Origin: Chondrosia reniformis
Taxonomy: Eukaryota > Porifera > Demospongiae > Chondrillida > Chondrillidae
Assembly (NCBI GenBank): GCA_947172415.1
Contig: OX359189.1
Coordinates: 5,656,501 to 5,720,500 of the forward strand
Direction: 5' to 3'
Length of the DNA: 64,000 bases
A model generated the notes under the pieces. It was not told the origin of the DNA and did no database searches. It worked only from the letters and a program-made list of their open reading frames with translations. Of this stretch, positions 24,949 to 52,660 are shown one piece after another (positions within the stretch are counted from its first letter, which is position 1; each line of letters begins with the position of its first letter). A program made the translations under genes and the position numbers.

Positions 24949-27524
24949 TCAGCATTGCCAAGTGCAGTAGGGGGATGCAGCACAAGCATCTCGTGTACGA
25001 TAGTAGTGTTGACAGTAATAGCCATAAGTTCTCCTGTAGCGATTGCCTGTCTTTTTCTGACAGCAGTTTGACTGAGGGCTTGAGTGGCAACGTCCCCCAT
25101 ACCAACTACACACACATATATACAAAAAGTAGTAAGACCTTATTTGTATATGCATTTATATTCATATATACACGTATGTACAAAAGAATTGAAATTTTTA
25201 AAAGCTGTTCTTTGACTTACTAGCATCTTATTCCATAACGCTGCTGTGCCCAGTAGCAATGACTTGAGTAGTAATATGATTGGCATGACGGCCTAGGTCT
25301 GGCCTTACACTGACATCTATTTCTATCCAGAATTTCATGAGGTGCACATTTCCTACTGCATTGACATCTACAGGAATCCTGACTGTAAGTATAGCCAGTG
25401 GAGCATCTATGTGATTGATAGCGATAACTATACCAATAGGGACATCTACATTTGCAAGTGTACTTGCTGAAGTACTTCGGGTAGGGACAAGAAATTACTC
25501 TTGGACATTTAGGTGGTTTGGTAGGTGGTCTAATGGTTGGTTTAGTAGTGGCAGTAGGCGGCTCTGTTGTGCTTGGAGTGTTGGTGGTTGCTGTAGTAGG
25601 TGGGGGAGTTCCTGTAGTAGGTGGGGGAGTTCCTGTAGTAGGTGGGGGAGTTCCTGTAGTAGTTGGAGTGTTTTGTGTGGTTGGAGTTGTTGGAGGAGTT
25701 GTTGGAGGAGTTGTCGGAGGAGTTGTCGGAGGAGTTGTTGGAGGAGTTGTCGGAGGAGTTGTCGGAGGAGTTGTCGGTGTAGTTGGTGGCTGGGTAGTTA
25801 TAGCCTGAAGTATATAAAAGGAAAAGTATATAGCAATTTCTTATTTACAGTCTTACAGTAGCACATATGTAGTGTTATTTAAACTTTTATATTAATGAGT
25901 ATCTTTAGTACATTACCTCTGCTAGAAGTATTGATGTTGAACCTCGGGTTGTGTGTTGCAAAATTGGAAGTGGATCAGCGTCATTCCAGGCAAAACAGAC
26001 AAACACTGATTGACCCTGTAGTACACAGTATATGGCATGCAATATATGGCAAAATGTAAATAGAGTCACTTTGTAAGTAATAATTATAAGTCTTTACTAT
26101 AAAGTCTTGAGTGGCTAGGAAAGCTCATGTTGAAATTCGATCACTCATAAATGCTAGCCAACGTGAAATGGTTCTCTCAAATGTTTTGACAACCTATGGC
26201 TGCCTTCATCAGTAATGACAAGTAAACAAACACTACGTACTGTATATATAAGTACAAAAAGCAGACAGATAGCGATAGGTCATGTGAGATACAACAGAGT
26301 GTAAAACAGGAAGTACAAGTCAACAATATGTACATTGAACCTTAATACATAAAGTGACAAGTTGGCAAATTCAAATACAGATTGATATTCCTTAATCCAG
26401 AATATTCCTTTATGTGTTATGCGATTAAGTGAGGCCCACTGTAATAGTAAGTAGATTGTGATATCAGTCCAATAGGGTGGCATAGATTCCAGGCATTGGG
26501 CCCCTTCCCCTATTGAGAGGGGCTTGCTCATGTTGGATATGCCAGGACTCCAACAAACAACAGGTCTGTGTGTGGGGGTGGGAATCTATCTATTAGGCTT
26601 TGGACAAGTCCATCTGGTGATCTATAAGACGATCACATGTTTAGCAAGTGCTGAGGTTCAATGTACATATTGTCGACTTGTACTCCCTGTTTTACACTCT
26701 TTTGTATCTCATGTGACCTATCGCTATCTGTCTGCTTTTTGTACTTATACAGTAGTGTTTGTTTACTTGTCATTACTGATGAAGGCAGCCGTAGGTTGTT
26801 GAAACATTTGAGAGAACCATTTCATGTCAGCTAGCGTTTATGAGTGATTGAATTAATAAGTCTTTATTCTGTACATTTCTGATCTGCTATATCTCTATTT
26901 TGGGGTCTGTGTTTATATCTGTGTTCGTAAATATTGCTGTTTCTATATACCTGTACACACAAGCATATATCCGAGATGCAATATTCTACTAACCCTTGGG
27001 ATGGGTAAGTCCTCAGATGTATCACCTGTTTCAAGAAACCTCCAAAATCTAATAATAGTAAATCCATTATTTTCTTCACCACTAATGAGATTCCAACCAT
27101 TAGGAATTGTATCAAAAACAGGAATTATCCGAGCAGGAGCAAAACGATCCTATGAAGGAGGAGAACCACTTATTAATATCTATATATGTACGTATACTAT
27201 AATTAACCAACTTACACTAAAAGCCACTGATCCCCCATCTACCCAGGCAAAAGCAATGTCAGACCCAGGCATCATTCCGTTTGGCGATATTCCAAAAGCA
27301 ACCCATCCAGTGGTTTCTACTCTAACTGCAAAACTGGCATTATCTGCACTGTCTACTGACCAATACAGTTCATATCCAGTAGTAAGCTCTTCAAAATTGT
27401 CAAATTGGGACAGCAGAGTAGGATCTTGAGACAATATTGTTTTTAGATTTAGAAAAAGCACTATACATAGTAACAGCTTCATGGTGAGAGCTGTCAGTGA
27501 GTTGAAGTGGAGTTTAGAAAGCAT
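24949..27524 (-). CDS. DomA: secreted DOMON / Thr-Pro linker / Cys-rich protein
   Basis: Five exons: 27524-27216, 27149-26994, 26015-25917, 25804-25221, 25105-24949; 434 residues. Introns are phase 0 except the last (phase 2). Start: ATG 27524 or, with a cleaner signal peptide (MKLLLCIVLFLNLKTILSQ), ATG 27482. Exons 1-3 encode a DOMON domain (~34-188): YELYWSVDS, GWVAFGISPNGMMPGSDIA, the RFWRFLETGD strand and VFVCFAWNDADP. DOMON domains bind haem or sugar in many secreted or membrane redox proteins; the ligand here is unknown. Residues 189-287 are a Thr/Pro mucin-like linker made of TTPP and TTTGTPPP repeats. The rest is cysteine-rich, with CXC pairs such as YTCKCRC and DSCRCQCSRKC, and the last exon adds a cap ending YCTWQC. 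The frame of exon 4 reads TAG at the donor, so the cap appears only after splicing. DomA is a near twin of DomB. Confidence 0.85.
26133..26854. mobile_element. ~720-bp foldback element in DomA intron 2
   Basis: Two ~200-bp arms (26133-26342 and 26653-26854) are inverted copies, with a ~310-bp centre. Each arm carries CTGATGAAGGCAGCC followed by a paired strand and AAAC (26776-26805 on plus, 26183-26212 on minus), which again resembles the hammerhead CTGATGA...GAAAC order. Penelope-like elements and retrozymes are known to leave such inverted copies. No protein frame is recognisable. The element is also in the DomB intron (34502-35140), so it predates the duplication. Confidence 0.7.
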
Positions 27525-27851
27525 TTTCCTTCTTATAGTGGCAAATTGCTAACGTCAGCATCACTGGTGTCACTTCCTGGGTAGGGCTTATGTTGGTATA
27601 CACTTTGTCAGGATATTTAATAACTTCAGCGTTAGTCTGTCACCTATATAGCCACTAGTATAAATTGTTTTTTAATTGCTTGTACTAATCCTTGTTAATG
27701 AGGACCTGTCATGACCAAGCCCATGGACTGCTTGCTAACATGTGTTTGCAAAGTCTTTTAGCTTGTATGGCTGCATTCCTTAATGACAGATGGATTTTCC
27801 AACACAGACCTGCCAATATTTAAGATTTGTTTGCAGACTGAACGTATTATG

Positions 27852-28770
27852 ACATCTATAGAGCACGTCTAATGTGATTTTGAAATTTTGATGGAACTTA
27901 AAATTTGCCCTATCTCTCACCATACATTAACTTTGTATTGCAGAATTTAATGTACATTGATGGCTGTAACTCTATCAAATGGAGAGATATGAAGCCAACA
28001 CTATGTGTCAGCATTCACAGACATCTATAGAGCATGATAAGTAAAATATTCACTGGAAAAATATTACGCCAAATCAGCCAAGTGACCGAAGTATAATCTT
28101 GGCTGGGGGACCGAAGTCCTATTAAAAATGGCAACCAGTGACCGCCTCCCAGTCATCCAAATTTGCCTATCTCTCACCATATGTTAACTTTGTATACCAG
28201 AATTTAATGTACATTGATAGCTGTAACTCTATCAAATGGAGAGATATGAAGCTTGTTAACACTATGCTTCAGCATTCACAGACATCTCTAGAGCATGTCT
28301 AATGGGGTTTAGAAATTTTGATGGAACTAAAAATTTGCCCTATCTCTCACCATACATTAACTTTGTGTACCAGAATTTAATGAATAATCGATGTGATAAT
28401 CAAACCACAAGTAATAATCACTCAAACATCATAAAGAGGGAAAAACACGAAAGAAGCAATTGCTGGGAATTGAACCCAGGACAGCTGGTTATGACCACCA
28501 GTTGCTCTGCCACTGAGCTACAACTGCCACAGCAATACCCCCCTCATGCTCTCCCTCTTAAGCTAACTACAACTAATATTTGGTGTACATTCTTAATCAG
28601 TGGTGATTCTCTTCATCAGTACAAGCTGATAATCAAGACCCAGCCCATTTCCAGTGCGAGGGGCCATCTTAACCAATGTACATTGAGGGCTGTTACTCTA
28701 TCAAATGGAGAGATATGAAGCTAAATCTTTGTGTAAGCATTCACAGACATCTAATAAACCGGTCTAGTCG
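27852..28770. repeat. ~170-bp satellite, broken array with inserts
   Basis: Satellite anchors (GACATCTATAG or GACATCTCTAG) occur near 27852, 28018, 28280 and 28743. Between units lie unrelated inserts, among them a tRNA-like sequence (28456-28527). No gene. Confidence 0.75.
28456..28527 (-). tRNA. tRNA-like sequence (pseudo-tRNA or SINE head)
   Basis: The 72-nt minus-strand sequence folds as a tRNA. The acceptor stem GCAGTTG/CAATTGC pairs over 7 bp with one G-U. The D arm is GCTC-AGTGGCA-GAGC, the anticodon stem CTGGT/ACCAG, and the T arm CTGGG-TTCAATT-CCCAG. A-box (TAGCTCAGTGG) and B-box (GGTTCAATTCC) promoters are intact, and a T5 run follows about 10 nt downstream. The anticodon loop GGTCATA lacks the universal U33: a strict fold gives TCA and a shifted one gives CAT. 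It is therefore more likely a tRNA pseudogene or SINE head than a working tRNA, and it sits inside satellite DNA. Confidence 0.6.
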
Positions 28771-28784
28771 AAATATTGACCATA

Positions 28785-29710
28785 GACATTATTATCGTAC
28801 AGGCGATAAATATTGGACCTCTCACTATATTTAGTTTTCTGTATCATGAAAAGTCAATCTCCTCCCTCCACCAAGACACATACAGGCTTTTATCCATTTG
28901 CCACAGTTTTGAGATGTATTGGAAATACTACGTATGCGTGTAAAATTGCTTGGAACGATTCACTGGTCTGGAATTAAAGTGAAATAAATTGACGATTTCT
29001 CGAAAATAATTGGGATCAGAAAAGTCGTTCTCCTCGGCCCATCAAGACACTTACAGGATTTGTTCGCTTTTCCCAGTTTTCAGGTGAACCACTAATACTG
29101 CCTATGTCTTTAAACTTGCTTGAAACAATTCACTGATCTGGAAATAACAGGAAATATATTAAAAAAGGTCCCAACCACAACCGTTTTCTTTGGACAAAAC
29201 TTCATATAAATAGAAGCGAAAAACCTTATATAGTAGGCCTACCTGGACACATCTCTATGGTGGTTGCGGTTCCCATAGAGGTTGGTAGCGCTTAGACTCT
29301 GAAGCTGTCTCCTAATCGGTTGGTGCCATAGAGACGTGCTCACCAATAATCCGGATTTCGGGGGGGTTCCACGTAATGTGGGATTGGCATCTGATATCTT
29401 TAAGGATTCATATGAGTCGGCCATATCGAGAAGAGCTGGTTCTTCTCACGCAAATGACACCCAATGCTCAACTCGGCAGTAATTTGCTTCGGCAGATGAA
29501 CGTTACCAACGATCCCGGCCTATGAGCGTCGTGGATGGTAGCGTTCGGTATGGTCCAACTTTTTTTCTTTGGAGTTTCGATGGCTGTCGATTGACGATAT
29601 TTCACTTTAACGAGATCCATATAAAATATATGGATAGATAGTACTTCCATAACAATCAAGTACTACACAGTGCATATCCATATGTATAAAAAATTGGAAA
29701 GTATTCTAGA
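28785..29710. repeat. ~0.9-kb interspersed repeat R1, copy 2
   Basis: Second copy of the 20625-21560 repeat in the same orientation, with scattered substitutions and a few small indels (for example near 29498). Like copy 1, it is followed by ~170-bp satellite units, so R1 and satellite may form one larger repeat. Confidence 0.75.
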
Positions 29711-29829
29711 TTTTCAGATATAGTATGGAATTGTTCTCTTTATTATAATATTATACCTTCTGACGGTCGGCCATATATACTATTACGCAATTTTCTCTAA
29801 CCAAACAGTACATTACAAAACAGTACATT

Positions 29830-30890
29830 AACTGTAGTTCTGTAACTCTATCAAATGGCGAGATATGAAGCTAAGTCTTTGTGTCAGCATTCACAGACAT
29901 CTATAGAGCATGTCCAATGAGTTTTTGAAATTTTGATGGAACTTAAAATTTGCCTTATCTTCTCACCATACATTAACTTTGTATACTAGAATTTAATGTA
30001 CATTGATGGCTGCAACTCTATCAACTGGAGTGATATGAAGCTAACACTTTGTGTCAGCATTCACAGACATCTATAGAGCATGTTTAATGGGTTTTTGAAA
30101 TTTTGATGGAACTTAAAATTTGCCTTATCTTCTCACCATACATTAACTTTGTATACTAGAATTTAATGTACATTGATGGCTGCAACTCTATCAACTGGAG
30201 TGATATGAAGCTAACACTTTGTGTCAGCATTCACAGACATCTATAGAGCATGTTTAATGGGTTTTTGAAATTTTGATGGAACTTAAAATTTGCCTTATCT
30301 CTCACCATACATTAACTTTGTATACTAGAATTTAATGTACATTGATGGCTGCAACTCTATCAAATAGAGAGATATGAAGCTAACACTATGCCTCAGCATT
30401 CACAGACATCTATGGAGCACGTTTAATGGGTTTTTGAAATGTTAATGGAACTTAAATTTGCCTATCTCTCACTATATTAACTTTGAATACTAGAATTTAA
30501 TGTACATTGATGGCTGTAACTCTATCAACTGGAGAGATATGAAGCTAAGCCTAAGTGTCAGCATTCACAGACATCTCTAGAGCATGTATAATGGGGTTTA
30601 GAAATTTTGATGGAACTTAAAATTTGCCGTATCTCTCACCATACATTAACTTTGTATACCAGAATTTGATGTTCATTGAGGGTTGTCACTCCATCAAATG
30701 GAGAGATATAAAGCTAAATCTTTCTGTCAACATTCACAGACATCTATAGAGCATGTCCAATGAGTTTTTGAAATTTTGATGAAACTTAAAATTTGCCCTA
30801 TCTCTCACCATACATTAACTTTGTATACCAGAATTTAATGTACATTGATGGCTGTCACTCTATCAAATGGAGAGATATGAAGCTAAATCT
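29830..30890. repeat. ~170-bp satellite tandem array, about six units
   Basis: The anchor CATTCACAGACATCTATAG recurs at about 29888, 30058, 30228, 30398, 30563 and 30733, a steady spacing of ~165-170 bp. Units differ by a few percent. Nucleosome-length spacing and AT-richness are typical of satellites. No coding potential. Confidence 0.85.
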
Positions 30891-33404: not shown

Positions 33405-35821
33405 TCAGCATTGCCAAGTGCAGTAGGGGGATGCAGCACAAGCATCTCGTGTACGATAGTAGTGTTGACAGTAATAGCCATAAGTTCTCCTGTAGCGATT
33501 GCCTGTCTTTTTCTGACAGCAGTTTGACTGAGGGCTTGAGTGGCAACGTCCCCCATACCAACTACACACGCATATATACAAAAAGTAGTAAGACCTTATT
33601 TGTATATGCATTTATATTCATATATACATGTATGTACAAAAGAATTAAAAATTTTAAAGTTGTTCTTTGACTTACTAGCATCTTATTCCATAACGCTGCT
33701 GTGCCCAGTAGCAATGACTTGAGTAGTAATATGATTGGCATGACGGCCTAGGTCTGGCCTTACACTGACATCTATTTCTATCAAGAATTTCATGAGGTGC
33801 ACATTTCTTACTGCATTCACATCTACAGGAATCCTGACTGTAAGTATAGCCAGTGGAGCATCTATGTGATTGATAGCGATAACTATACCAATAGGGACAT
33901 CTACATTTGCAAGTGTACTTGCTGAAGTACTTCGGGTAGGGACAAGAATATACTCTTGGACATTTAGGTGGTTTGGTAGGTGGTCTAATGGTTGGTTTAG
34001 TAGTGGCAGTAGGCGGCTCTGTTGTGCTTGGAGTGTTGGTGGTTGCTGTAGTAGGTGGAGTGGTTTGTGTGGTTGGTGGAGTGGTTTGTGTAGTTGGTGG
34101 AGTGGTTTGTGTGGTTGGAGTTGTTGGAGGAGTTGTCGGAGGAGTTGTTGGTGTAGTTGGTGGCTGGGTAGTTATAGCCTGAAGTATATAAAAGGAAAAG
34201 TATATAGCAATTCCTTATTTACAGTCTTACAGTAGCACATATGTAGTGTTATTTAAACTTTTATACTAATGAGTATCTTTAGTACATTACCTCTGCTAGA
34301 AGTATTGATGTTGAACCTCGGGTTGTGTGTTGCAAAATTGGAAATGGATCAGCGTCATTCCAGGCAAAACAGACAAACACTGATTGGCCCTGTAGTACAC
34401 AGTATATAGCATGCAATATATGGCAAAATGTAAATAGAGTCACTTTGTAATTAATAAGTCTTCACTATAAAGTCTTGAGTGGCTAGGAAAGCTCATGTTG
34501 AAATTCGATCACTTGTAAACGCTAGCTGACATGAAATGGTTCTCTCAAATGTTTTGACAACCTACGGCTGCCTTCATCAGTAATGACAAGTAAACAAACA
34601 CTACTGTATATGTACAAAAAGCAGACAGATAGCGATAGGTCACATGAAATACAACAGAGTGTAAAACAGGAAGTATAAGTCAACAATACGTACATTGAAC
34701 CTTAATACATAAAGTGACAAGTGGGCAAATTCAAATAATAGTAAGTAAAGTGTGCTATCAGTCCAATAGGGTGGCATAGATTCCAGGCATTGGGCCCCTT
34801 CCCCTATTGAGGGGGACCTGCTCATGTTGGATATGCCAGGACTCCAACAAACAACAGGTCTGTGTGTGGGGGTGGGAATCTATCTACTAGGCTTTGGACA
34901 AGTCCATCTGGTGATCTGAGATGATTACATGTTCAGCAAGTGCTGAGGTTCAATGTATTGACTTGTACTACCTGTTTTTTCACTCTTTTGTATCTCATGT
35001 GACCTATCGCTATCTGTCTGCTTTTTGTACTTATACAGTAGTGTTTGTTTACTTGTCATTACTGATGAAGGCAGCCGTAGGTTGTCAAAACATTTGAGAG
35101 AACCATTTCATGTCAGCTAGCGTTTACGAGTGATTGAATTATAAGTCTTTATTCTATACATTTCTGATCTACTATATCTCTGTTTTGGGGTCTGAGTTTA
35201 TATCTGTGTACGTAAATATTGCTGTTTATTTCTATATACCTGTACACACAAGCATATATCCGAGATGCAATATTCTACTAACCCTTGGGATGGGTAAGTC
35301 CTCAGATGTATCACCTGTTTCAAGAAACCTCCAAAATCTAATAATAGTAAATCCATTATTTTCTTCACCACTAATGAGATTCCAACCATTAGGAATTGCA
35401 TCAATATCAGGAATTATCCGAGCAGGAGCAAAGCGATCCTATGAAGGAGGAGAACCACTTAGTAGTAAATCTATTAATATCTATATACATATACTATAAT
35501 TAACCAACTTACACTAAAATCCACTGATCCCCCATCTACCCAGGCAAAGGCAATGTCAGACCCAGGCATCATTCCATTTGGTGATATTCCAAAAGCAACC
35601 CATCCAGTGGTTTCTACTCTAACTGCAAAACTGGCATTATCTGCACTGTCTACTGACCAATACAGTTCATATCCAGTAGTAAGCTCTTCAAAATTGTCAA
35701 ATTGGGACAGCAGAGTAGGATCTTGAGACAATATTGTTTTTAGATTTAGAAAAAGCACTATACATAGTAACAGCTTCATGGTGAGAGCTGTCAGTGAGTT
35801 GAAGTGGAGTTTAGAAAACAT
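33405..35821 (-). CDS. DomB: secreted DOMON / Thr-Pro linker / Cys-rich protein
   Basis: Five exons: 35821-35513, 35438-35283, 34389-34291, 34178-33676, 33561-33405; 407 residues. It is a tandem twin of DomA: signal peptide, DOMON (GWVAFGISPNG, PGSDIAFAWVDGG), a Thr/Pro linker, CXC-rich region, and a cap exon ending YCTWQC. The linker is 27 codons shorter than in DomA (72 against 99 residues) because the short in-frame repeats differ in number and type; here they encode TPPTTQTT-like units. The first half of the second DOMON exon reads DRFAPARIIP-like sequence, where DomC and DomD have DRH. As in DomA, exon 4 runs into TAG at the donor. Both twins appear intact, with all splice sites kept. 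Confidence 0.85.
34502..35140. mobile_element. Foldback element in DomB intron 2
   Basis: Duplicate of 26133-26854 with a shortened left arm and centre. The hammerhead-like box is also present (CTGATGAAGGCAGCC at 35062), but the second box has decayed to CAAAAC. Confidence 0.7.
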
Positions 35822-37992: not shown

Positions 37993-40900
37993 TCAACAAT
38001 GCCAAGAACAATAGGCTGATCTCCTACAGCCATCTTTGTTAAGACTACTGCACATGTATGTAGACCTCCGATCTTGGTGCAATCCATGGTGATTCATGTA
38101 CATAGGAATACAACAGGAAGGTGTGTGACATCTATTGTTATGCCATCTAAGTGTATATACAAGAAGAGAAATATACTATATAATATATATATTACAAATT
38201 GAATAGGCTCATGCACATTATACAAGAATTACATTTGTATTATCAAACCATACAGCTTGTACTGCAAGGAAAAATAAATAATACTTGCTAATGAGTGAAC
38301 AGCAAGTATATGTATCAAAAATGACCTATAATAAATATTGCCTTTTGAGGCTATGTGCCTAGTTAATTTGTTTACCTGCAAGGTCTTCCCCTGTAAAAAG
38401 TTGATTTACACTTCCAATGCTCCTGAATTGACCCACAGATGTTTGTGTTTCTGCATTTACATGTAGTGGCATCAAGGTATTCATCCGGGTCACACTTTCG
38501 ATTACAGGTACAGCCACAGGTCTCCTCATCATGGGTATATCCTTCCAAGCATTTATCATTTGGCTTTGGACATTCACAGGTACAGGTGTGGTAGTTTAAC
38601 ACTTTTCCTGTTGGACAATAGCCTATGTGGCAATTGCGAATGCAGTTACATTTTTCTTGATCCCATACGTAGCCAGGGGGACAGTATCTACGCTTGCATA
38701 GACATTCACATTTCTCTGTGTCCCAGATATATCCACTTGTGCATTTTTTCCATATACAATCACATTTACAGGTAAGTCTGTTCAACCTTTGTGAGTTTGG
38801 ACATTCTATTGAGGGACATTGACAACGACAAGTTTCATTATTCATAACCTTGCCAGTGGGACATTTATACCATCTTGGACATTCACAACCACAAGTGAAG
38901 GGATTAAAAATTTTGTTGTTCCTGTTATAGTAGCAATCCTTAGACCTTGATAACCAAGCATCCTCTGAAATGATGGCATTACAAACACACTTACATTGTA
39001 TTTCATCAAATGTGAAGCCAGCTTCACAGTCTTGTGAGTTCATGCAGCGACAGCTACAAGTGTTGGAATCAAACTCTTGGCTTCCACAACATTCAATCTT
39101 CCCATCACAAACACAGCTACAAGAGGTATCATTGAATGTCTGTCCAGCAGGACAGGTTGGTCTTGCTATACATGTACAACTACAGGTATTATTGTTAAAA
39201 TCCTGACCAGGTGGGCATTGTAGGATATCTGTACACTGACAGCTACAGGAGGTATCATTGAATGTCTGTCTAGGAGGACAGGTTGGTCTTGCTATACATG
39301 TACAATTACAGGTATTACTGTTAAAATCCTGACCAGGTGGGCATTGTAGGATATCTGTACACTGACAGCTACAGGAGGTATCATTGAATGTCTGCCTAGG
39401 AGGACAAGTCACACCACCACTGCACACACACTGACATATCTCAAAATTGAATTCATAGCCTGGTTGACAGTTGATACCTTCACCTGTGCATTGGCATTCA
39501 CAAGCAGTATTGTTAAATGTGTAACCCGGTTCACAAGTCACCTCTCTGCAAACACAGGCACATGCGTCAATGTCAAAGTCATATCCAGCCTGGCAGGTGA
39601 CAGCATCATTACAGGTGCAGTTACACACATCTGGTGATGAATCAAATATATATCCAGGTGGACAAGTTGTGTTTTCATTGCATTCACACAAGCATGTTAA
39701 ATTGTTAAATACCTGAGTAGAAGAAGACAGTTATGTACATACGCACGTATCAGAATGACTTGGTTGTTTACTGTACATACATCAGTAGAGAATATTAATT
39801 TTAAGGCAAAGCAATATATAGGCATGTTGAAGTTGGCCAAAGTCTACTAAAAGAGAATATACATTTATATATATACCTATGTACATGTTTTTGTCAGAAC
39901 ATTTTGTTATAATAGACTATAGCTTAATTAGTTTACGGAAATTCATACCATATTATATCTAGTTAAATGCATGATATCTTACCTCATTTGGCCCACAATT
40001 TAATACATTTGAACACACACATTCACATGTATCATCCATTAACTTCATTAAGTCAGGACAATCAGGTTGGGTACACTGGCAGCTACAAGAGGTATCATTG
40101 AATGTCTGCCTAGGAGGACAAGTCACATTACCACTGCATACACACTGACATATCTCAAAATTGAATTCATAGCCTGGTTGACAGTTGATACCTTCACCTG
40201 TGCATTGGCATTCACAAGCAGTATTGTTAAATGTGTAACCCGGTTCACAAGTCACCTCTCTGCAAACACAGGCACATGCGTCAATGTCAAAGTCATATCC
40301 AGCCTGGCAGGTGACAGCATCATTACAGGTGCAGTTACACACATCTGGCGATGAATCAAATATATATCCAGGTGGACAAGTTGTGTCTTCATTGCATTCA
40401 CACAAGCATGTTAAATTGTTAAATACCTGAGTAGAAGAAGACAGTTATGTAAGCACGTATCAGAATGACTTGGTTGTTTACATACATCAGGAGAGAATAT
40501 TAATTTTAAGGCAAAGCAATATATAGGCATTTGAAGTTGGCCAAAGTCTACTAAAAGAGAATATACATTTATATATATACCTATGTACATGTTTATATCA
40601 GAACATTTTGTTGTAATAGACTATAGCTTAATTAGTTTACGGAAATTCATACCATATTATATCTAGTTAAATGCATGATATCTTACCTCATTTGGCCCAC
40701 AATTTAATACATTTGAACACACACATTCACATGTATCATCCATTAACTTCATTAAGTCAGGACAATCAGGTTGGGTACACTGGCAGCTACAAGAGGTATC
40801 ATTGAATGTCTGCCTAGGAGGACAAGTCACATTACCACTGCATACACACTGACATATCTCAAAATTGAATTCATAGCCTGGTTGACAGTTGATACCTTCA

Positions 40901-43900
40901 CCTGTGCATTGGCATTCACAAGCAGTATTGTTAAATGTGTAACCCGGTTCACAAGTCACCTCTCTGCAAACACAGGCACATGCGTCAATGTCAAAGTCAT
41001 ATCCAGCCTGGCAGGTGACAGCATTATTACAGGTGCAGTTACACACATCTGGTGATGAATCAAATATATATCCAGGTGGACAAGTTGTGTTTTCATTGCA
41101 TTCACACAAGCATGTTAAATTGTTAAATACCTGAGTAGAAGAAGACAGTTATGTATGTACGCACGTATCAGAATGACTTGGTTGTTTACTGTACATACAT
41201 CAATAGAGAATATTAATTTTAAGGTAAAGCAATATATAGGCATGTTGAAGTTGGCCAAAGTCTACTAAAAGAGAATATACATTTATATATATACCTATGT
41301 ACATGTTTATATCAGAACATTTTGTTGTAATAGACTATAGCTTAATTAGTTTACGGAATATTCATATATAGCATATTGTATCCAGCTAAATGCATGACAT
41401 CTTACCTCATTTGGCCCACAATTTAATACATTTGAACACACACATTCGCATGTATCATCCTTTAACTTCATTAAGTCAGGACAATCAGGTTGGGTACACT
41501 GGCAGCTACATGAGGTATCATTGAATGTCTGCCTAGGAGGACAGGTTGGTCTTGCTATACATGTACAACTACAGGTATTACTGTTAAAATCCTGACCAGG
41601 TGGGCATGGTAGGATATCAGTACACTGACAGCTACAGGAGGTATCATTGAATGTCTGTCTAGGAGGACAGGTCACACCACCACTGCACACACACTGGCAT
41701 ATCTCAAAATTGAATTCATAGCCTGGTTGACAGTCGATATCTTCACCTGTGCATTGGCATTCACAAGCAGTGTTGTTAAATGTGTAACCCGGTTCACAAG
41801 TCACCTCTCTGCAAACACAGGCACATGCGTCAATGTCAAAGTCATATCCAGCCTGGCAGGTGACAGCATCATTACAGGTGCAGTTACACACATCTGGTGA
41901 TGAATCAAATATATATCCAGGTGGACAAGTTGTGTTTTCATTGCATTCACACAAGCATGTTAAATTGTTAAATACCTGAGTAGAAGAAGACAGTTATGTA
42001 AGCACGTATCAGAATGACTTGGTTGTTTACTGTACATACATCAGTAGAGAATATTAATTTTAAGGCAAAGCAATATATAGGCATGTTGAAGTTGGCCAAA
42101 GTCTACTAAAAGAGAATATACATTTATATATATACCTATGTACATGTTTATATCAGAACATTTTGTTGTAATAGACTATACCTTAATTAGTTTACAGAAT
42201 ATTCATAGCATATTATATCTAGTTAAATGCATGATATCTTACCTCATTTGGCCCACAATTTAATACATTTGAACACACACATTCACATGTATCATCCTTT
42301 AACTTCATTAAGTCAGGACAATCAGGTTGGGTACACTGGCAGCTACAGGAGGTATCATTGAATGTCTGCCTAGGAGGACAGGTCACATTACCACTGCATA
42401 CACACTGACATATCTCAAAATTGAATTCATAGCCTGGTTGACAGTTGATACCTTCACCTGTGCATTGGCATTCACAAGCAGTGTTGTTAAATGTGTAACC
42501 CGGTTCACAAGTCACCTCTCTGCAAACACAGGCACATGTGTCAATGTCAAAGTCATATCCAGCCTGGCAGGTGACAGCATCATTACAGGTGCAGTTACAC
42601 ACATCTGGTGATGAATCAAATATATATCCAGGTGGACAAGTTGTGTCTTCATTGCATTCACACAAGCATGTAGAATTGTTGTATATCTGATGAGTAATGT
42701 AATACAAAATTGACAATATGAAGTCAAATAGTTTCTTATATAATAAGTAGATAGAGTGTGGTTCATCTATAGACACCAGGCGGTGTGTTCAAACTTGGCA
42801 CTTAGGGCAGCCAGAAAATGTTTGTTCATATTCAAATGCAATTTCTGCATATTAATGTATAACAAACACTGCATAGCCTGAAAATTTGACGGCATTTAAA
42901 TTTGACCATTTGGCTTCAAACTGCATGGGTATATGTATTGGTGGAATTTAATTTGACAGTTTTTGCAGCTACTATGTTAAGTTTCAATGAATCCAATTTG
43001 TATATAGTGTATACAGGGAGTACTAAATATCAAGAAGAAGACAAAGATTCCCAGGGTCAATGATGAAGGGTAGAATTCCCAAAAACAGCTCTCTGGCCCA
43101 GTGAAGAAGAGAAAAAAGAAAAAAAATTCTTGTACCTATCCTCATTGAAAGCTCTCATTAGGTTTAGTTTCCCATAGGCCATTTACTCTAAAGTAGATGT
43201 AGTATGTAGGAAAATGGTATGTTAGATTATGCATTGTGACTAACCTCATTTAGGCTGCAATTACGATGGGCACACATACATTTACAGGTATCCTCATCAA
43301 ACTGCTGTAAACCAGGGCATTCAAAACCTGGCAGAATTGAGCTAGGAGGACAATCACACTTGCAGGTTATAAAATCTAATGACTTTGGCTCATTGCATTT
43401 TACATCACATATGTCAATGCACTGACAAGTGACTCGATCAAAGCGTTGTCCATTTGGACAATCAGTACTCTCTACTTCAGGACACTCTGGAGGAGCTTCA
43501 CACCGACAAAGGTTTTCGTTAAATTCCATGTTAATTCCACAGGGTTGAGGGAAGCACTCACATTCACAAGTAAAAGGGTTCAGGTCAGGCTAATGGTGAT
43601 ATGAATGACATATAATTATATAATCAAAAATATATGGAATCCAAAAATGTACATAAAAATTAATATGTAATGTACGTGCGTATGTATGCATATAGAAAAT
43701 AACTTGAATATGTACGTACATAAGTGCTACAGCAACTGTATTGCATTAATCACTGCTATAATACTGAAACTAACTGCTAATGGAAATATATAAAAACTTA
43801 CTTTTGTAGAATCATTGCATTGTATAGTAGAACAATTGCACCTGCATTCAGAAGTTAAAACCCCTGTTGAGCAAATAGACATCAGAATTTCACTGCAAAA

Positions 43901-45868
43901 GTTGTCTGTTGAACTGGGAGGGGAAGGGGTGGGTACTGGTGGCCCAGTGACTACGCTGGTTGATGGTAGGAATACGCTGGTTGATGGTAGGAATACGTTG
44001 GATGGCTCAGGTGAGAGACTAGGTGTAGTTTGTTCAACTGAGATGTCCTTGGAATGTAAACAACACAAATTACTCAAATAATATGAGTGCGTTATATATG
44101 TAGATTTATGTCAGGCATTTAATGCTTTCACTAAAACCACAATTACAGTAATTATTTTGCATTTTGGCAACACAGAAAACCGATACACAGTAAGAAAACA
44201 TACTTCAGCAAGCATGATCTGAAGTGATCCTCTCATTTGATGCAGATTGAAGGGTGGTGGATCATCATTATTCCAAGCATAGCATATAAACACTTGAGTT
44301 CCCTAAGGTGTATATTGCAAAGTTTTACAAAATTTATAACAACCAATTTTGAATGCCCATATATTGAACATGTACAAGGTACGTACAATGTACCTTGTAA
44401 CAATCAAATAAACTGAACAGAAACTAATGTAAGAGCAAGGTGGTATAAATAATCAAAGTCTTTGAATGTAATTACATACAGGTGTATGATATTTATAACC
44501 ATTTGATCAGAAATACATCACTGCAGGTATAGTAAATGCATGAGTATGTATATACGGTGACCACAGCATTACATTAGATTCCTATAGGTCCATCAAAATG
44601 TATGCTTTGAGGTAGATATTGCCACTGTATATAGATTTGAGTATCATGAGAAGGAACTACGTAGATATAGGACTATAAGGGTTCACAAGTATATATAGCA
44701 ACTGAATTATATCCACTATTTTGCATGTATATAAATTAAATATGAGGACACAAAACGAAAGCCTTACATATGCACCAATTGTCTTGTATTATATACATAG
44801 CTATGTAGGTATGTTTAACCAAACCAGCTTCTTTCCTGCTTTTGCAATTTATGGTGGTACATTCAGTTGATAGCAAACCATCAATATACACATATATACC
44901 TCATAATCATAAGCATTCTTATATAGGTTAGATAACCAAGTATATATATAGGAGAATGATGCTTTAGATTATTATTCATGTACATATATAAAAGAACTGC
45001 TATAAACAAACGTAAAGTCCATATGAAAACACAGTCTCCTTCATTTGCATGTGTTCCTGTGTATTGCAAATAATTACAACCCAAAGGAAAAACCTCATGC
45101 ATTATGTTTGAGTCTGATCAAAATGGTTCATAAGCCAAATACAATTACTTTATATTGAAGCAGGAAAGAAACTGGTTTGGTTACAAAATTATTCTTTTTA
45201 AGTGATTAGTAACAAAAGTCTAGATGCCAAAGCATATCAAACTCATAGAACCCCCCTTCTGACACCATATTCAAATTGGTGAAATTACTCCACATATTGG
45301 ATGCTTACCCTTTGGATAACTAAATCTTCAACTGAATCTCCGGTGTTAAGATACCTCCAAAACCTTATTGTCGTAAATCCATCCCGCTCTTCTCCACTGA
45401 TTAAATTCCAGTTAGATGTAGTGTCAATAATCGGTACTACACGAGTAACGGAATGTCGATCCTAGGGAAAGTAACATATCGGATATTTTTATGCAGACAT
45501 CCATAAAGAACAGACAGTAGATGGTACATTACTAAATGACTGCTTATACGACAACTTACTGAAAAAGACACTTCTCCAGAACCCCCATCTACCCATGCAA
45601 AGGCAATATCTGACCCGGGCATCAATCCATTTGGCGATATACCAAAGGCAACCCATCCAGTAGTTTGTACTCTGACGGCAAAGGTAGCATTGTCATCGCT
45701 GTCTACAGACCAATAAAGTTCGTATCTTCCGTCAGAGCCGTTGTAAAGTAATAGCGATTGATCAAATTCTGCCTGTAAAGTTGCATCTAGGCTCCCTTCG
45801 CCTTGAGAAACGTTAATTAACTTACAAACGAAGAAAAGTACAAGCGATAGCTTAACTAGTGAAAGCAT
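37993..45868 (-). CDS. DomC: large secreted DOMON / CXCXC-repeat protein
   Basis: Eleven exons: 45868-45560, 45461-45309, 44302-44204, 44047-43802, 43589-43245, 42686-42243, 41975-41406, 41130-40687, 40426-39983, 39712-38376, 38146-37993; 1514 residues. The signal peptide (MLSLVKLSLVLFFVCKLINV) is followed by DOMON (1-187) with GWVAFGISPNGLMPGSDIA and DRHS, a Ser/Thr/Pro linker (188-269, FLPSTSV repeats), and ~1200 residues of CXCXC repeats of the pattern C-P-x-G-x-x-F-(N/D)-x-x-x-C-x-C-x-C. Exons 6-9 and the first part of exon 10 are repeated modules that begin alike (CLCECNE). The last exon encodes RWHNNRCHTP...SAYCSWHC, the family cap. CXCXC repeats occur in Balbiani-ring proteins and the VEGF-C/D tail, where they are extracellular; a structural, adhesive or matrix role is plausible but not shown. 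Many NDT/NNT glycosylation sequons. Confidence 0.85.
39234..39485 (-). repeat. 126-bp coding repeat in DomC exon 10
   Basis: Two adjacent 42-residue units (CPPRQTFNDTSCSCQCTD...CSCTCIARPT) start at 39234 and 39360 with a spacing of exactly 126 bp. The same unit forms a longer array in DomD and occurs once in DomC exon 7. Confidence 0.85.
39712..42686 (-). repeat. Serial exon+intron duplication in DomC
   Basis: Exons 6, 7, 8, 9 and 10 start 711, 845, 704 and 714 bp apart. Exons 6, 8 and 9 are 444 bp and nearly identical; exon 7 is the same plus one 126-bp repeat unit. The introns between them are also near-identical (all contain CAGAATGACTTGGTTGTTTA). All these introns are phase 0, so any module can be skipped or added without breaking the frame. 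Confidence 0.95.
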
Positions 45869-47124: not shown

Positions 47125-47153
47125 CTTGAAGAAGACCTCCGGGTCGAAACATC
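47125..47153 (+). other. Hammerhead-like core, degenerate
   Basis: Plus-strand CTTGAAGA, hairpin GACC-TCCG-GGTC, then GAAACATC. The stem II hairpin is perfect (4 bp), but the first box has an extra T and the cleavage triplet is ATC. The following sequence (AATTAGTAAATC...CTTTATTCTC) matches the 22203-22230 copy, confirming a shared origin. Confidence 0.45.
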
Positions 47154-47159
47154 CTAAAT

Positions 47160-47918
47160 TAGTAAATCACTGTTGTTGATCCATAAGGCTTTATTCTCAT
47201 TGTATATGTATGATATGTATTATGTATAGTTTTAGATCATATGCATTACATATATTCACTCTTATAAGTGATCACATAGCAGTCTTGGGTAACATATGTA
47301 TATAAACAGTGATTCAGAATAGAGGTAACCCCAAAATATTATATATATTGTTCACGTTTATGAGTTCTAGTATGGAAATGACAGGAATGCCACTTGGAGT
47401 CAGTAAAGAGAATTGTATAATAAGCCATCCAGATCAAGACCATTGGTGGTGGGCTGATGAACTTGTCAAGCAGCATACAACCACTAACCCAAAATATGGA
47501 ACTTGTACTCTTTCCACCCAAACAATTAAACTTATGTCCAATTTCATCATTACTATTCATAGTTGTAATTATTACATCTCTATATATTATCACATCATTA
47601 TTCTGTTATGTATAATATATACCTATTACATTCTTTCACCTTATTGTAACAGTATCAATTGAAATAGTTTTACACTTGAAAGGAAATTAATGCTTGCACA
47701 CTGCAACTACATGAATGTGTAAATTGATTGAAATTAAGGAATTCTATTTGTAGCCATATATAAATGATCAGATAAATTCAAAGATATAAGAAAGTATAAT
47801 GTTATGCATATATGTGGGTGTAAATGAAGATTTTCCAATTATTAACAAGGGAGTAATGTGACACTGAAATACATGTCTTGGCAAAGTGACAATATATATA
47901 TTTGCAGATGTTTCTTCT
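47160..47918. other. Downstream flank of DomD, no gene assigned
   Basis: A plus-strand frame at 47309-47662 contains a Trp/His-rich stretch (HPDQDHWWWADELVKQ) that looks protein-like, but it has no recognised family and ends in low-complexity Tyr/Ile sequence. It may be a degraded insertion. Confidence 0.35.
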
Positions 47919-50900
47919 TTAGCATATCCAAGAACAGTATCTAGAGTATGTTAAACATTTCTGTTGATTCTTCAGGTAACAACCATAAGTCCTTCTAGAA
48001 CGATGCCTTTGACGAGGCTCACAACAGATATTATAGCACTTTCCAGCTCTCCAACTGTATAGTACAAATAAGGTGCACACATCTCATATGAAGTAAAGAA
48101 CATTATGGACAATACAGACACAATTTCTTAGTTTCAAACTACACTGTTACATACATATATATACTCTTCTGTAGTTTCATCCTAATTTTACATAGAGCAC
48201 AGAATGACAATATAATATTCATGTACAATGGGATATATTATGTAAAACACTAGACTATATTTTAGGGCCTGGAGACTATGCTCAATAGAAATAATAATAA
48301 AACAGAAATATGTCTTTTAACCTACTAGCATTGTTGAGAGCCAAGGCATGTGTAGGCATGTCTTCTTTGTTTACAGTTGATCTGGACCCTTGGCTGTGGG
48401 ATACAGAGACAGTTGGTTCTATCCAAAATTTCATTATGACCACATCTACGGTTACATTCACACCGGCAAGAATCTTCATTATAACTGTATCCACTGGAGC
48501 AATGACGATTACCAGATCTTGGACATTCACAGGAACAGGTAGTTGGATTTAATTGTTTACCATTTGGACAATGATTCAGCTTACATGAGTGGTAACACCC
48601 GCACCTCTGTTGATCCCATGAGGTGCCATGTGGACACCGTCGTTGCTGACAGATGCACTGGCAGTTAGATTTATCTAAAGTATATCCACTAGAGCAATGT
48701 CGTTGACATCTACATTCACAGTGGTTCCTGTCGAAAGAATATCCTTGTGAACATTGCCTAGGCTGACAAATGCACCGACAAGTAGATTTATCTAAAGTAT
48801 ATCCACTAGAGCAATGTCGTTGACATCTACATTCACAGTGGTTCCTGTCGAAAGAATATCCTTGTGAACATTGCCTAGGCTGACAAATGCACCGACAAGT
48901 AGATTTATCTAAAGTATATCCATTTGGGCAAGATCTTTGACATTTACACCTACAATAACTGTTGTCAAAAGAATATCCTTTAGGGCATCTATAGGTTCTT
49001 GGACATTGACAAGAACACAAGTGCTTGTTGAATATTTGAGGAGGTCTGCAATTTAAATTTGCACATTGACAATGACAAGTTTCATTATTCATAACCTTGC
49101 CAGTGGGACACCTATACCATCTTGGACATTCACAACCACAAGTGAAGGGATTAAAAATTTTGTTGTTCCTGTTATAGTAGCAATCCTTAGACCTTGATAA
49201 CCAAGCATCCTCTGAAATGATGGCATTACAAACACACTTACATTGTATTTCATCAAATGTGAAGCCAGCTTCACAGTCTTGTGAGTTCATGCAGCGACAA
49301 CTACAAGTGTTAGGGTCAAACTCTTGACCTTCACAACACTCTATCTCTCCATCACAAACACAGCTACAAGAGGTATCATTGAATGTCTGTCCAGCAGGAC
49401 AGGTTGGTCTTGCTATACATGTACAACTACAGGTATTATTGTTAAAATCCTGACCAGGTGGGCATGGTAGGATATCTGTACACTGACAGCTACAGGAGGT
49501 ATCATTGAATGTCTGTCTAGGAGGACAGGTTGGTCTTGCTATACATGTACAACTACAGGTATTATTGTTAAAATCCTGACCAGGTGGGCATGGTAGGATA
49601 TCTGTACACTGACAGCTACAGGAGGTATCATTGAATGTCTGTCTAGGAGGACAGGTTGGTCTTGCTATACAAGTACAACTACAGGTATTACTGTTAAAAT
49701 CCTGACCAGGTGGGCATGGTAGGATATCTGTACACTGACAGCTACAGGAGGTATCATTGAATGTCTGTCTAGGAGGACAGGTTGGTCTTGCTATACAAGT
49801 ACAACTACAGGTATTACTGTTAAAATCCTGACCAGGTGGGCATGGTAGGATATCTGTACACTGACAGCTACAGGAGGTATCATTGAATGTCTGTCTAGGA
49901 GGACAGGTCACATTACCACTGCACACACACTGACATATCTCAAAATTGAATTCATAGCCTGGTTGGCAGTCGATATCTTCACCTGTGCATTGGCATTCAC
50001 AAGTATTGTTGTTAAATGTGTAACCCGGTTCACAAGTCACCTCTCTGCAAACACAGGCACATGCGTCAATGTCAAAATCATATCCAGCCTGGCAGGTGAC
50101 AGCATCATTACAGGTGCAGTTACATACATCTGGTGATGAATCAAATATATATCCAGGTGGACAAGGTGTGTTTTCATTGCATTCACACAAGCATGTTAAA
50201 TTGTTAAATAACTGCAATTTAAAAAGAAACCAACCTAATTTAGAATTAATGATGCAGGTTGCCATATAAGACAATTGGTAATGTATGTATGTATATAAGT
50301 GGAAGGGATCTTCTCAAATTTTAGGCATTTGGTATATACAAACATGTTAATGCTTTGAAGAGATACTATGTTATATGAATTAAAGCTGTATTGGTTATTG
50401 CATGTTAGTATTACAAAAATGTTACTATATAGCGTTTTATATAATAATGGAAAATTAATGTAATGTATATGCATTAGTACCTCATTTGGTTCACATGCTA
50501 TTTCATTTGGACATTTACAAAAGCAAGTTTCTTCATCAAAGACAAGTAATCCAGGACATTTGAGCTCACGTGGAATAGGAGATGGGGGACATTCACATTC
50601 ACAGCTTGTATAGTTCAGGAATTTTGGTGAGTCACACGTTATGTTGCAAATGTCTACACACTGACAACTGATTAGATCAAAGCGCTGACCAGTAGGGCAA
50701 GTTCTGTTCTCAACTTCAGGACACTCTGGTGGTGCTTCACACCGACAAATACTTTCAGTAAATACCATATTTATTCCACAGAACACAGGGAAACATTCAC
50801 ATTCACAAGAAAATGGATTTAGATCAGGCTGAGAAAAGAATTTTAATATGGAGACATAAAAACATGCATATATAACGCCTCAACAATAATTTATTTACAG

Positions 50901-52660
50901 ATGGAGGATTCTATTTAAGTATATGTGCTATATATACTTCTCAAGGTGCCTACCAATATTATGTATCATTGTGATATTAACGTATTTTGGTTGTAGTTTA
51001 GAACAGCTAATAAATTTCATTTCTCGTGCATGCTGCATGAAGACAGACTATGTATAAAACAATTTCTTCAGATTTTTCTATCATACTTCATTTAGATCAT
51101 GCAACTTACTTTTGATGTATCACTGCATTGCACTGAAGAACAGTTGCATGTACAGTCTGGAAGCAGGCTCCGTGTTGCACAAACATCCGCAGCACCAGGT
51201 GGACAAGTTATAGGATCAGGAGATGGTGTACCAGTTGGTGTACTGGTTGGTGTACTGGTTGGCTCCACAATGAGAGAACTGGATTCTGCTACACTTGAGA
51301 CACTGGTTGGCTCAACACTCGAAATAGAAGCAGTTACTGCCTATATATATTAAATTTTGTGCTGAAACTCTGTAAATATGAAGCTTAAACTTGCTCAGCA
51401 TTCACAGACATATATTGTACATTTCCAAAAAGTTTTAGATTTATATGTAAAATTTGCCCTATCTCTCTCTCCATACATTAAAACAAAATATTTCCCTGTG
51501 GTGGAGGAAAGAAAGTGTCCTGCTCCTTCTACTGAAGAAAGTGCTTTTATACCTTATATACATCCCAGAACCCTATATAGGTCTTTATTTCTGTCAATAC
51601 CTGTTTAATTATGATGTGCTTCAAAAATTAAAGCATTATATATATATATATATTGAGAATAAATGATGATTTACTTTAAACTTACAATGTTTTCTGCTAA
51701 CATAATCTGCATGGATCCTCTTTGTGTCCTGCCATGTGTATTAAAGGGTGGAGGATCACTATTACTCCAAGCATAGCAAATAAACACAGAACTTCCCTGG
51801 AGGAATTATATACAAATACAAATTGTATTATATAATGAATATACGTATAGGGAAATAGTATATTCCAATTTAACATTTGCCTGGCAAATGAACACAAGAC
51901 AATTTTGATCATGAATGAGCTATGAAATGCAAAGTATACGAATTTTATGGTAGATCTATGGCAATATATACATTTTAATATATAATGCATATAGATTATA
52001 GACATTCTAATCTCTAAAATACACGATTTATATAATATGTGTTATGTACAGCTTTACTGACCCTTGGAATAACTAAATCTTGTGAAGTATCACCAGTATC
52101 AAGAAGCCTCCAAAATTTTACTATTGTAAAACCATTTTCCTCTTTAGCACTGATTAATTTCCAACCATCATCGTCTCTGAGTCTATCTACAACAGGCACA
52201 GCGCGTGCTTCTGCATGGCGATCCTGCATAGAGAAGGTTCACGGAAATTAAACCGTATATAGATATACAATGCAAGTTACAAAATACAAAATACCGTAGT
52301 GTAATTAATTAATTAAATAAATAAATAATACAGATACCATGCAGAGGGGTCAAGTTTTAGGCGACTTACTGAAAAGGACACTTGTCCAGTACTCCCATCT
52401 ACCCATGCAAAGGCAATATCTGACCCGGTCATAAATCCATCTGGCGATATACCAAAGCCAACCCATCCAGTAGTGTTAACTTTAATAGCAAAGGTAGCAT
52501 TGTCAGTACTGTCTACAGACCAAAACAGTTCGTATCTTCCGTTAGAGCCATCAGCTAGTAACAGTGACTGATCAAATTCTGCTTCTAAAGTAGCATCCAA
52601 GCCACTCTGACATTTGGCCACGAAAATGCAAGCCAAAACTATTGCAGAAGTTAGCCACAT
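47919..52660 (-). CDS. DomD: large secreted DOMON / CXCXC-repeat protein
   Basis: Seven exons: 52660-52370, 52223-52062, 51796-51686, 51340-51110, 50828-50481, 50211-48326, 48054-47919; 1054 residues. A signal peptide (MWLTSAIVLACIFVAKCQSG) precedes DOMON (1-188; GWVGFGISPDG, DRHAEARAVP, VFICYAWSNSDPPP), a Ser/Thr/Pro linker (TSTPTSTPTGTPSP), a conserved CXCXC exon (SCECECPPSP), and one 1886-bp exon holding all repeats that DomC spreads over five exons. It contains four copies of the 126-bp unit and two of a 117-bp unit (CSQGYSFDRNHCECRCQRHC). The cap exon gives YWRAGKCYNICC...RYCSWIC. Exon 6 reads TAG exactly across the donor (TGC-TA|GTAGGT). The first exon is 18 bp shorter than in DomA-C. 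The gene is divergent from the DNAAF8-like gene. Confidence 0.85.
48684..48917 (-). repeat. 117-bp coding repeat in DomD exon 6
   Basis: Two tandem units with exact 117-bp spacing (ATCCACTAGAGCAATGTCGT at 48684 and 48801), each coding for 39 residues with six cysteines. A diverged third unit lies on the side toward the DOMON domain. The unit differs from the 126-bp repeat. Confidence 0.8.
49355..49905 (-). repeat. 126-bp coding repeat array in DomD exon 6
   Basis: The junction CACTGACAGCTACAGGAGG occurs at 49481, 49607, 49733 and 49859, exactly 126 bp apart; units are nearly identical at the DNA level, including silent positions. This indicates recent expansion or gene conversion. Each unit encodes 42 residues with NDTS sequons. 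Confidence 0.95.
51363..51485. repeat. Single degenerate ~170-bp satellite unit in DomD intron 3
   Basis: Contains GCATTCACAGACAT, ATTTGCCCTATCTCTC and CCATACATTAA in satellite order, with many changes. It shows that the satellite also occurs outside the arrays. Confidence 0.6.

What the first reader, a model, noticed from the sequence alone, without database searches (positions are those of the whole stretch)
24949..52660. Four tandem secreted proteins with an unusual DOMON + mucin-like linker + CXCXC architecture
Seen: DomA-D share a signal peptide, a DOMON domain on three exons of nearly equal length (187-188 codons in all four), a Thr/Pro linker, a CXCXC-type cysteine array and a cysteine cap. 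Known: DOMON domains (DBH/MOXD, CDH, AIR12-like) bind haem or sugars; CXCXC repeats are known from Balbiani-ring proteins and the VEGF-C/D tail. I know of no described family that joins them. Inference: extracellular or matrix proteins whose cysteine stalk length varies from ~150 to ~1200 residues while the DOMON head stays constant.
Basis: partly seen in the sequence, partly recalled or inferred. Interest (0 to 1): 0.8.

Follow-up and report, generated by a model that had tools for sequence, protein, structure and literature searches.

The report
Secreted DOMON-headed, cysteine-stalked protein family
Four neighbouring animal genes appear to encode secreted proteins that put a borrowed enzyme-type binding domain on a cysteine-rich stalk of very different lengths; they are probably building blocks of the material outside cells.

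Summary
Four minus-strand genes (DomA-D: 420, 393, 1514, 1054 aa) splice with GT-AG introns, phase 0 except the last (phase 2), into leader + three-exon DOMON + S/T/P linker + CXCXC array + cysteine cap. Pfam DOMON is strong in the three scanned; CXCXC passes its cut-off in DomA and DomD. DomA/B have only two CxCxC motifs, but their tail matches DomD's.

Added here: (1) The head is the DBH-like monooxygenase type of DOMON; eight other DOMON loci in this genome carry the copper domain, none was seen with CXCXC. (2) Met and His, haem ligands in CDH-type DOMONs, are kept in all four; haem binding is untested. (3) A DOMON cysteine is present in 4 of 4 Dom heads, 0 of 6 paralogues. (4) About 300 array codons are nearly identical between DomC and DomD (dS about 0.1) although their DOMONs are old (dS 0.82): homogenisation. 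(5) CXCXC proteins without DOMON occur on contig C2.

Best reading: secreted, disulfide-built matrix stalks with a ligand-binding head (0.5). New combination of known parts, as far as searched.

The parts
24949..27482 (-). DomA gene, 5 exons (27482-27216, 27149-26994, 26015-25917, 25804-25221, 25105-24949), 420 aa; alternative in-frame ATG at 27524
   Evidence: GT-AG splice model without stops; Pfam DOMON and CXCXC
33405..35779 (-). DomB gene, 5 exons (35779-35513, 35438-35283, 34389-34291, 34178-33676, 33561-33405), 393 aa, recent duplicate of DomA
   Evidence: self-comparison of the window
37993..45868 (-). DomC gene, 11 exons, 1514 aa, 237 Cys, 52 CxCxC; exons 6-9 are near-identical copies of an array exon
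47919..52660 (-). DomD gene, 7 exons, 1054 aa, 154 Cys, 31 CxCxC
25917..27482 (-). DomA leader and DOMON (exons 1-3)
   Evidence: Pfam PF03351 8.4e-24
34291..35779 (-). DomB leader and DOMON (exons 1-3)
   Evidence: 10 nucleotide differences from DomA over 174 codons; not scanned with Pfam
44204..45868 (-). DomC leader and DOMON (exons 45868-45560, 45461-45309, 44302-44204)
   Evidence: Pfam PF03351 1.9e-25
51686..52660 (-). DomD leader and DOMON (exons 52660-52370, 52223-52062, 51796-51686)
   Evidence: Pfam PF03351 3.1e-26
25221..25804 (-). DomA exon 4: Thr/Pro linker (98 aa) and the two CxCxC units
33676..34178 (-). DomB exon 4: Thr/Pro linker (71 aa) and the two CxCxC units
43802..44047 (-). 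DomC exon 4: S/T/P linker (47 aa) and start of Cys region
51110..51340 (-). DomD exon 4: S/T/P linker (43 aa) and start of Cys region
38376..43589 (-). DomC array exons 5-10 (43589-43245, 42686-42243, 41975-41406, 41130-40687, 40426-39983, 39712-38376)
48326..50828 (-). DomD array exons 5-6 (50828-50481, 50211-48326)
38807..39712 (-). DomC exon 10 codons 1-302, nearly identical to DomD exon 6 codons 1-132 and 217-386 (dS 0.08 and 0.11)
24949..25105 (-). DomA cysteine cap exon
33405..33561 (-). DomB cysteine cap exon
37993..38146 (-). DomC cysteine cap exon with stop
47919..48054 (-). DomD cysteine cap exon with stop

Best explanation
DomA-D are secreted extracellular-matrix (or coat) proteins: a DOMON head of the DBH-like monooxygenase type, cut loose from its copper enzyme, sits on an O-glycosylatable linker and a rod of disulfide-bonded CXCXC units, closed by a cysteine cap. 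The head binds a ligand or partner (haem b is the leading candidate from the kept Met/His pair), the four-cysteine units fold into a stiff stalk, and cysteines left over in head and cap link chains to each other. Stalk length is set by unit and exon duplication and by recombination between the neighbouring genes. Shown by computation: open spliced models, domains, homology, residue conservation, average purifying selection on the head, array homogenisation. Inferred: splicing, secretion, glycosylation, disulfides, ligand, matrix location.
For: Three lineages (A/B, C, D) keep the order DOMON - linker - Cys - cap with the same intron phases. Leaders are hydrophobic and the proteins end with the cap (seen in the sequence; no predictor was run). 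DOMON dN/dS 0.13-0.31 over the six pairs, with dS near saturation (1.7-2.0) for A/B against C/D. CxCxC spacings of 19-23 residues: 47 of 51 in DomC, 26 of 30 in DomD. NxS/T sequons in the DomC post-linker part 36 against a shuffle mean of 15.2, max 27; DomD 16 against 8.5, max 18, so not beyond shuffles there; DomA/B none. The genome also has leader-bearing frames made almost wholly of such units: 907 aa with 37 CxCxC and 321 aa with 8 on contig C2, and an array gene with a cap-like end at C2:9.68 Mb. From papers: a DOMON protein 'similar to DBH-like monooxygenase protein 2-like' is in the skeletal proteome of the sponge Vaceletia (PMC4633127, passage); membrane-bound DOMON proteins of a settling coral are classed under ECM/cell adhesion (PMC3204972, passages); a CXCXC motif makes promiscuous inter-chain disulfides in mosquito CTL4/CTLMA2 (PMC6811590, passages).
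Against: No transcript, proteome or localisation data for these genes. Vaceletia's DOMON protein is not shown to carry CXCXC. The same anatomy suits a soluble adhesin. DomA/B have almost no stalk (two units), so a long rod cannot be essential to all members. The cap has no Pfam or PDB relative, so its cross-linking role is a guess; the array fold is unknown (no PDB match; structure prediction switched off).
Confidence: 0.5

Rival explanations
1. Secreted recognition molecule or adhesin: the DOMON head binds a glycan or microbial surface and the CXCXC part is a spacer and oligomeriser, as in the mannose-binding protein of Acanthamoeba.
For: Acanthamoeba MBP1 joins DUF4114, the proposed mannose site, to CXCXC repeats and a TM helix (PMC9692275, passages). 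Tandem duplication and homogenised arrays would also suit a recognition family (inference). DOMON-class domains include sugar binders (stated in PMC4846438, passages).
Against: Met and His are kept in all four heads, whereas sugar-binding DOMONs are reported to lack them (PMC10691727, passages). The proteins end with the cap, no TM helix seen. Average selection on the heads is purifying.
Confidence: 0.2
2. Extracellular haem protein: the DOMON is a b-type cytochrome that passes electrons or binds free haem, tethered in the matrix by the Cys stalk.
For: Met in 11 of 12 and His in 10 of 10 DOMONs of this genome that have the respective exon in the hand-spliced alignment; the Met falls on a Met of CDH 4qi3 in the profile alignment; the Met/His pair is the reported haem signature in CDH and CYBDOM (PMC10691727; PMC10784544; passages).
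Against: The CDH alignment is weak (E 0.39) and does not reach the His. The same two residues occur in the copper-monooxygenase paralogues, for which nothing read here shows haem. No electron-donor domain is present; the only cytochrome b561 match of the genome search is on contig C11.
Confidence: 0.15
3. Secreted protease inhibitor array of antistasin kind with an accessory DOMON.
For: A related CXCXC frame on C2 (L036) matches Pfam Antistasin at 4.7e-11.
Against: DomA, DomD and a 532-aa part of DomC give no Antistasin match at E up to 1 (A, D) or 10 (C part).
Confidence: 0.07
4. The DOMON exons and the Cys exons are separate neighbouring genes, and the joined architecture is a model artefact.
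For: No RNA evidence here. Read on without splicing, DomA exon 3 meets a stop four codons into the intron (sequence), so a DOMON-only product is possible; the second introns of DomA and DomC are about 1 kb.
Against: Same order and phases in three lineages with good splice sites; no leader-like start seen at the head of the Cys exons (by eye).
Confidence: 0.05

Closest known systems
DBH-like (DBH/MOXD) copper monooxygenases
   Same: DOMON with 45-49% identity to DomA for the five paralogues aligned; best solved relative is human DBH 4zel, 1.6e-8
   Different: Copper monooxygenase domains follow the DOMON (8 loci of this genome); the Dom genes have CXCXC + cap and no copper domain
DOMON-only DBH-like proteins of the sponge Halisarca dujardinii (PMC12665527, passages)
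   Same: Secretory signal, DOMON without copper domains
   Different: Described as terminated after the DOMON; no cysteine array is mentioned in the passages read. They could be undetected relatives
Acanthamoeba mannose-binding protein MBP1 (PMC9692275, passages)
   Same: Extracellular head domain joined to CXCXC repeats
   Different: Head is DUF4114, TM and cytosolic tail present, protist; analogy, no homology of the head shown
CDH cytochrome domain and CYBDOM proteins (PMC10691727, PMC10784544, passages)
   Same: DOMON class with Met and His ligand positions
   Different: CYBDOMs have a cytochrome b561 partner, absent here; Pfam CDH-cyt is below cut-off (20.1 against 27 bits in DomA)
Balbiani-ring proteins and VEGF-C/D tail
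   Same: CXCXC repeats
   Different: No DOMON (recalled); not compared by sequence here

Membership tests
DOMON domain (Pfam PF03351) | Score above the curated cut-off over nearly the whole model | tested here: met
   84.6 (DomA), 92.4 (DomD) and 89.9 (DomC part) bits against 32.7; model positions 2/3-123 of 124; DomB not scanned
CXCXC repeat proteins (Pfam PF03128) | Score above the curated cut-off, repeated units | tested here: met
   DomD 32.2 bits, 7 stretches; DomA 18.1 bits, 1 stretch (cut-off 15). The DomC part tested scored 12.4, below cut-off; DomB not scanned
DBH-like copper monooxygenase | Cu2_monooxygen N and C domains after the DOMON | tested here: not met
   No such match in DomA, DomD or the DomC part; the genome's 16 Cu2_monooxygen matches lie in 9 loci, none in the window
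CYBDOM | Cytochrome b561 domain with the DOMON | tested here: not met
   Single PF03188 match in the genome search, on C11; none in DomA, DomD or the DomC part
Haem-binding DOMON | Met and His at the axial-ligand positions | tested here: met
   Present in all four by alignment; Met position supported by the weak CDH alignment, His position only by the family alignment
Haem-binding DOMON | Bound haem b | not testable with these tools
   Needs protein
Antistasin | Pfam PF02822 match | tested here: not met
   None in DomA, DomD or the DomC part
Acanthamoeba MBP type | DUF4114 head and TM helix | tested here: not met
   No DUF4114 match in DomA, DomD or the DomC part; no TM helix seen after the array (by eye, no predictor)

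The most novel reading that the evidence does not exclude
A haem-bearing matrix: the enzyme-derived DOMON was recruited as an extracellular cytochrome on a disulfide rod, so that the animal's matrix is redox-active, and haem chemistry in the head drives or senses disulfide cross-linking of the cysteine stalks, whose length is tuned by gene conversion between tandem genes.
Probability: 0.1. Interest if true: 0.75.

Novelty: new variant of a known kind. Interest (0 to 1): 0.45.

Why it matters
It shows an N-terminal domain of DBH-like monooxygenase type moved onto a structural cysteine array, a combination for which the literature searches here found no description. It offers a clean case of how an animal can build proteins of very different length with a constant head, by exon duplication and inter-gene homogenisation, and it makes the open question of what DOMON heads bind testable in a small protein (DomB, 393 aa).

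Tried and rejected
Pfam CXCXC against the whole genome gave nothing: the model is 13 positions long and the answer itself says that this shows no absence; protein queries were used instead. A genome search with DomD's cap found only DomD's own cap and array end, not even the caps of DomA-C, so it says nothing about caps elsewhere. Cytochrome b561 next to Dom: none. Antistasin reading: only in a C2 relative. Silicatein test for sponge identity: 6 of 43 papain-family matches were read and all have the catalytic Cys, which decides nothing. PDB search of the array profile (E up to 0.1) and cap profile (E up to 10): no match. The cap relation to the C2:6.46 Mb proteins is only a resemblance of cysteine spacing: the cap profile did not find them at E up to 1. 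The C2:9.68 Mb cap matched only at E 0.74, no better than chance matches in the same list; it is taken as likely because it ends at the same last residue, after an array. SCREP and rusticalin papers were looked at for parallels (outline and passages) and dropped. The tree of 12 DOMONs used hand-spliced paralogues; two rows (L018a, L018b) lack exon 3, one (L016) is long-branched, and the Dom clade (92/96) is below the tool's star threshold of 95/80.

Not done: other sponge genomes (no collection held), RNA-seq, structure prediction (switched off), metagenome scans (none allowed), scans of the viral and prokaryote contig collections (not tried), signal-peptide or TM predictors (none offered).

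Full report
Gene structure. On the minus strand between 52660 and 24949 four genes can be spliced with GT-AG introns. DomA has 5 exons and 420 aa, DomB 5 exons and 393 aa, DomC 11 exons and 1514 aa, DomD 7 exons and 1054 aa. Every intron is phase 0 except the last, before the cap exon, which is phase 2 in all four. Each starts with a hydrophobic leader and ends with the cap (read from the sequence, no predictor run). DOMON exons 1-3 make 187 codons in DomC, 188 in DomD, and 174 or 188 in DomA/B according to the start codon.

Domains. Pfam gives DOMON 8.4e-24 for DomA, 3.1e-26 for DomD and 1.9e-25 for the first 532 aa of DomC; CXCXC passes its cut-off of 15 bits in DomA (18.1) and DomD (32.2) but not in the DomC part tested (12.4). 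DomB was not scanned; it differs from DomA by 10 nucleotides in 174 DOMON codons. CxCxC counts are 52 in DomC and 31 in DomD, beyond all 1000 shuffles; the 2 in DomA and DomB are not beyond chance by count, but the DomA tail aligns with the DomD tail through the last units and the cap (38% over 143 aa, 7e-34 against one sequence with composition correction off), and a DomD array query found it over the whole genome (9.8e-9). The cap has 13 invariant columns in three different sequences and no match in Pfam at E up to 10 or in the PDB. A genome search with DomD's cap found only DomD itself, so that search was too weak to tell where else caps occur.

Where the head comes from. The genome (117 Mb, 15 contigs, unnamed) has 75 DOMON matches, counts being lower bounds. 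Sixteen Cu2_monooxygen matches fall in 9 loci, and 8 of these lie within about 4 kb of a DOMON match: C1 at 7.980, 7.992, 8.002, 8.010, 8.063 and 5.960 Mb, C6 at 4.982 Mb and C10 at 5.483 Mb; copper-domain exons were read at L012, L014, L016 and L022, six pieces of which three score below the curated cut-off. Exon ends of these DOMONs appear to fall where those of Dom do (open frames read, not spliced exactly). In a tree of 12 hand-spliced DOMONs the four Dom heads group together (support 92/96) apart from six of the paralogues. So the Dom head is a DOMON of DBH-like monooxygenase type without its enzyme. No CXCXC array was seen in the twenty 10-kb stretches fetched around other DOMON matches, which cover only part of the 75, and array matches of two genome-wide queries lie only in this window, at C2:6.45-6.47 Mb and C2:9.68 Mb, with single weak places on C4, C6 and C8 that are not near a DOMON match. 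The join of DOMON and CXCXC was thus seen at this locus only, within the sensitivity of these searches.

Ligand residues. Met in 'NGxM' is present in 11 of 12 DOMONs aligned and His before 'RG' in 10 of 10 that have exon 3; both are invariant in the 8-row alignment A2. In the profile search the Met falls on a Met of CDH 4qi3, at a weak E of 0.39; DBH (1.6e-8) has Leu there. PMC10691727 states that Met and His are haem ligands in CDH, are kept in CYBDOMs, and are missing in sugar-binding DOMONs and in DBH (passages); PMC4846438 states that the pocket of the DBH DOMON has no typical haem ligands (passages). Haem is therefore the leading candidate, not a result; since the copper-enzyme paralogues share the residues, the pair may also serve something else.

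Cysteines. A Cys in the strand 'VF[VI]C[FY]AW' is in 4 of 4 Dom heads and in 0 of 6 paralogues that have exon 3, where the column is a gap in the hand-cut alignment. It is the only Cys of the head between leader and linker; the post-linker part has 22 Cys in DomA/B, 235 in DomC and 151 in DomD. The sum is odd in A/B (23) and even in C (236) and D (152), which would leave at least one cysteine for an inter-chain or small-molecule partner in A/B; this is arithmetic plus inference. A CXCXC motif forms promiscuous inter-chain disulfides in mosquito lectins (PMC6811590, passages).

How the stalk changes length. DomA and DomB lie in duplicated DNA whose aligned pieces are 92.7-96.8% identical. DomC exons 6-9 are near-identical array exons (dS 0.01-0.09). 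Between DomC exon 10 and DomD exon 6, codons 1-302 of DomC match DomD codons 1-132 and 217-386 at dS 0.08 and 0.11; the seven 40-codon bins over codons 1-280 are 90.8-100% identical, one of them perfect. The DOMON exons have dS 0.82, exons 1-5 are 63-80% identical, the caps 60%, and the array end is saturated, where the alignment of repeats is unsure. The head is old, this part of the array is young: conversion or unequal exchange between the neighbours keeps it alike. Average dN/dS of the heads is 0.13-0.31, with dS near saturation for the wider pairs.

Relatives without head. C2:9.68 Mb encodes an exon-5-like stretch, an array and a cap-like end; the DOMON search lists nothing on C2, and no DOMON was noticed in the open frames (45 aa or more, plus strand) of the 4900 bases read upstream, where a carbon-nitrogen hydrolase gene lies; its first exons were not resolved. 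C2:6.46 Mb encodes leader-bearing frames of up to 37 CxCxC in 907 aa. Head and stalk thus exist apart in this genome.

Function. The best-supported reading is a secreted matrix or coat stalk with a ligand-binding head (0.5). In its favour: anatomy, sequon enrichment in DomC (36 against a shuffle maximum of 27; DomD not beyond shuffles, DomA/B none), array relatives without head, and a DBH-like DOMON protein in the skeleton of the sponge Vaceletia (PMC4633127, passage). Rivals are an adhesin like Acanthamoeba MBP (0.2), a haem redox protein (0.15), a protease inhibitor (0.07) and a gene-model artefact (0.05).

Novelty. No paper in the held open-access library was found to carry both DOMON and CXCXC; subscription papers and protein databases were not searched. 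The parts are known, the combination appears to be new: a new variant of a known kind.

Noticed in passing
L034:178-2898 (-) and L036:1303-2265 (-), contig C2 near 6.46-6.47 Mb: Cluster of leader-bearing frames made almost wholly of CXCXC units (37 in one 907-aa frame), some with CC...C...C.W modules that resemble the Dom cap in cysteine spacing only.
   Followed up: partly
L031:223-2816 (+) and L049:4373-4612 (+), contig C2 near 9.68 Mb: CXCXC gene with exon-5-like part and cap-like end but no DOMON found; a possible DOMON-less relative of DomC/D.
   Followed up: partly
38807-39712 against 49054-50211: Part of the DomC and DomD arrays nearly identical although both ends of the genes are old: gene conversion or unequal exchange; the match stops within 3 bases of the exon start.
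   Followed up: yes
genome C5:1073181-1085414 and C13:6759453-6762778: Matches to the C-terminal half of DOMON at regular spacing of about 1.0 kb (13 and 4 in a row): long tandem DOMON proteins or gene arrays.
   Followed up: no
L025:2431-3423 (+), contig C8 near 5.279 Mb: DOMON match within one open frame of 331 codons that ends in a long Asp/His-rich tail.
   Followed up: no
20627-21930 against 28775-30100; 29840-30890: A 1.3-kb match (93% identical) at about the same offset (8.1-8.5 kb) as DomA/DomB, so probably part of the same tandem duplication; an internal tandem array lies in the second copy.
   Followed up: no
58534-61773 (+): 1079-aa open frame with only a sub-threshold NDK match in Pfam (18.8 bits, cut-off 27).
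   Followed up: no
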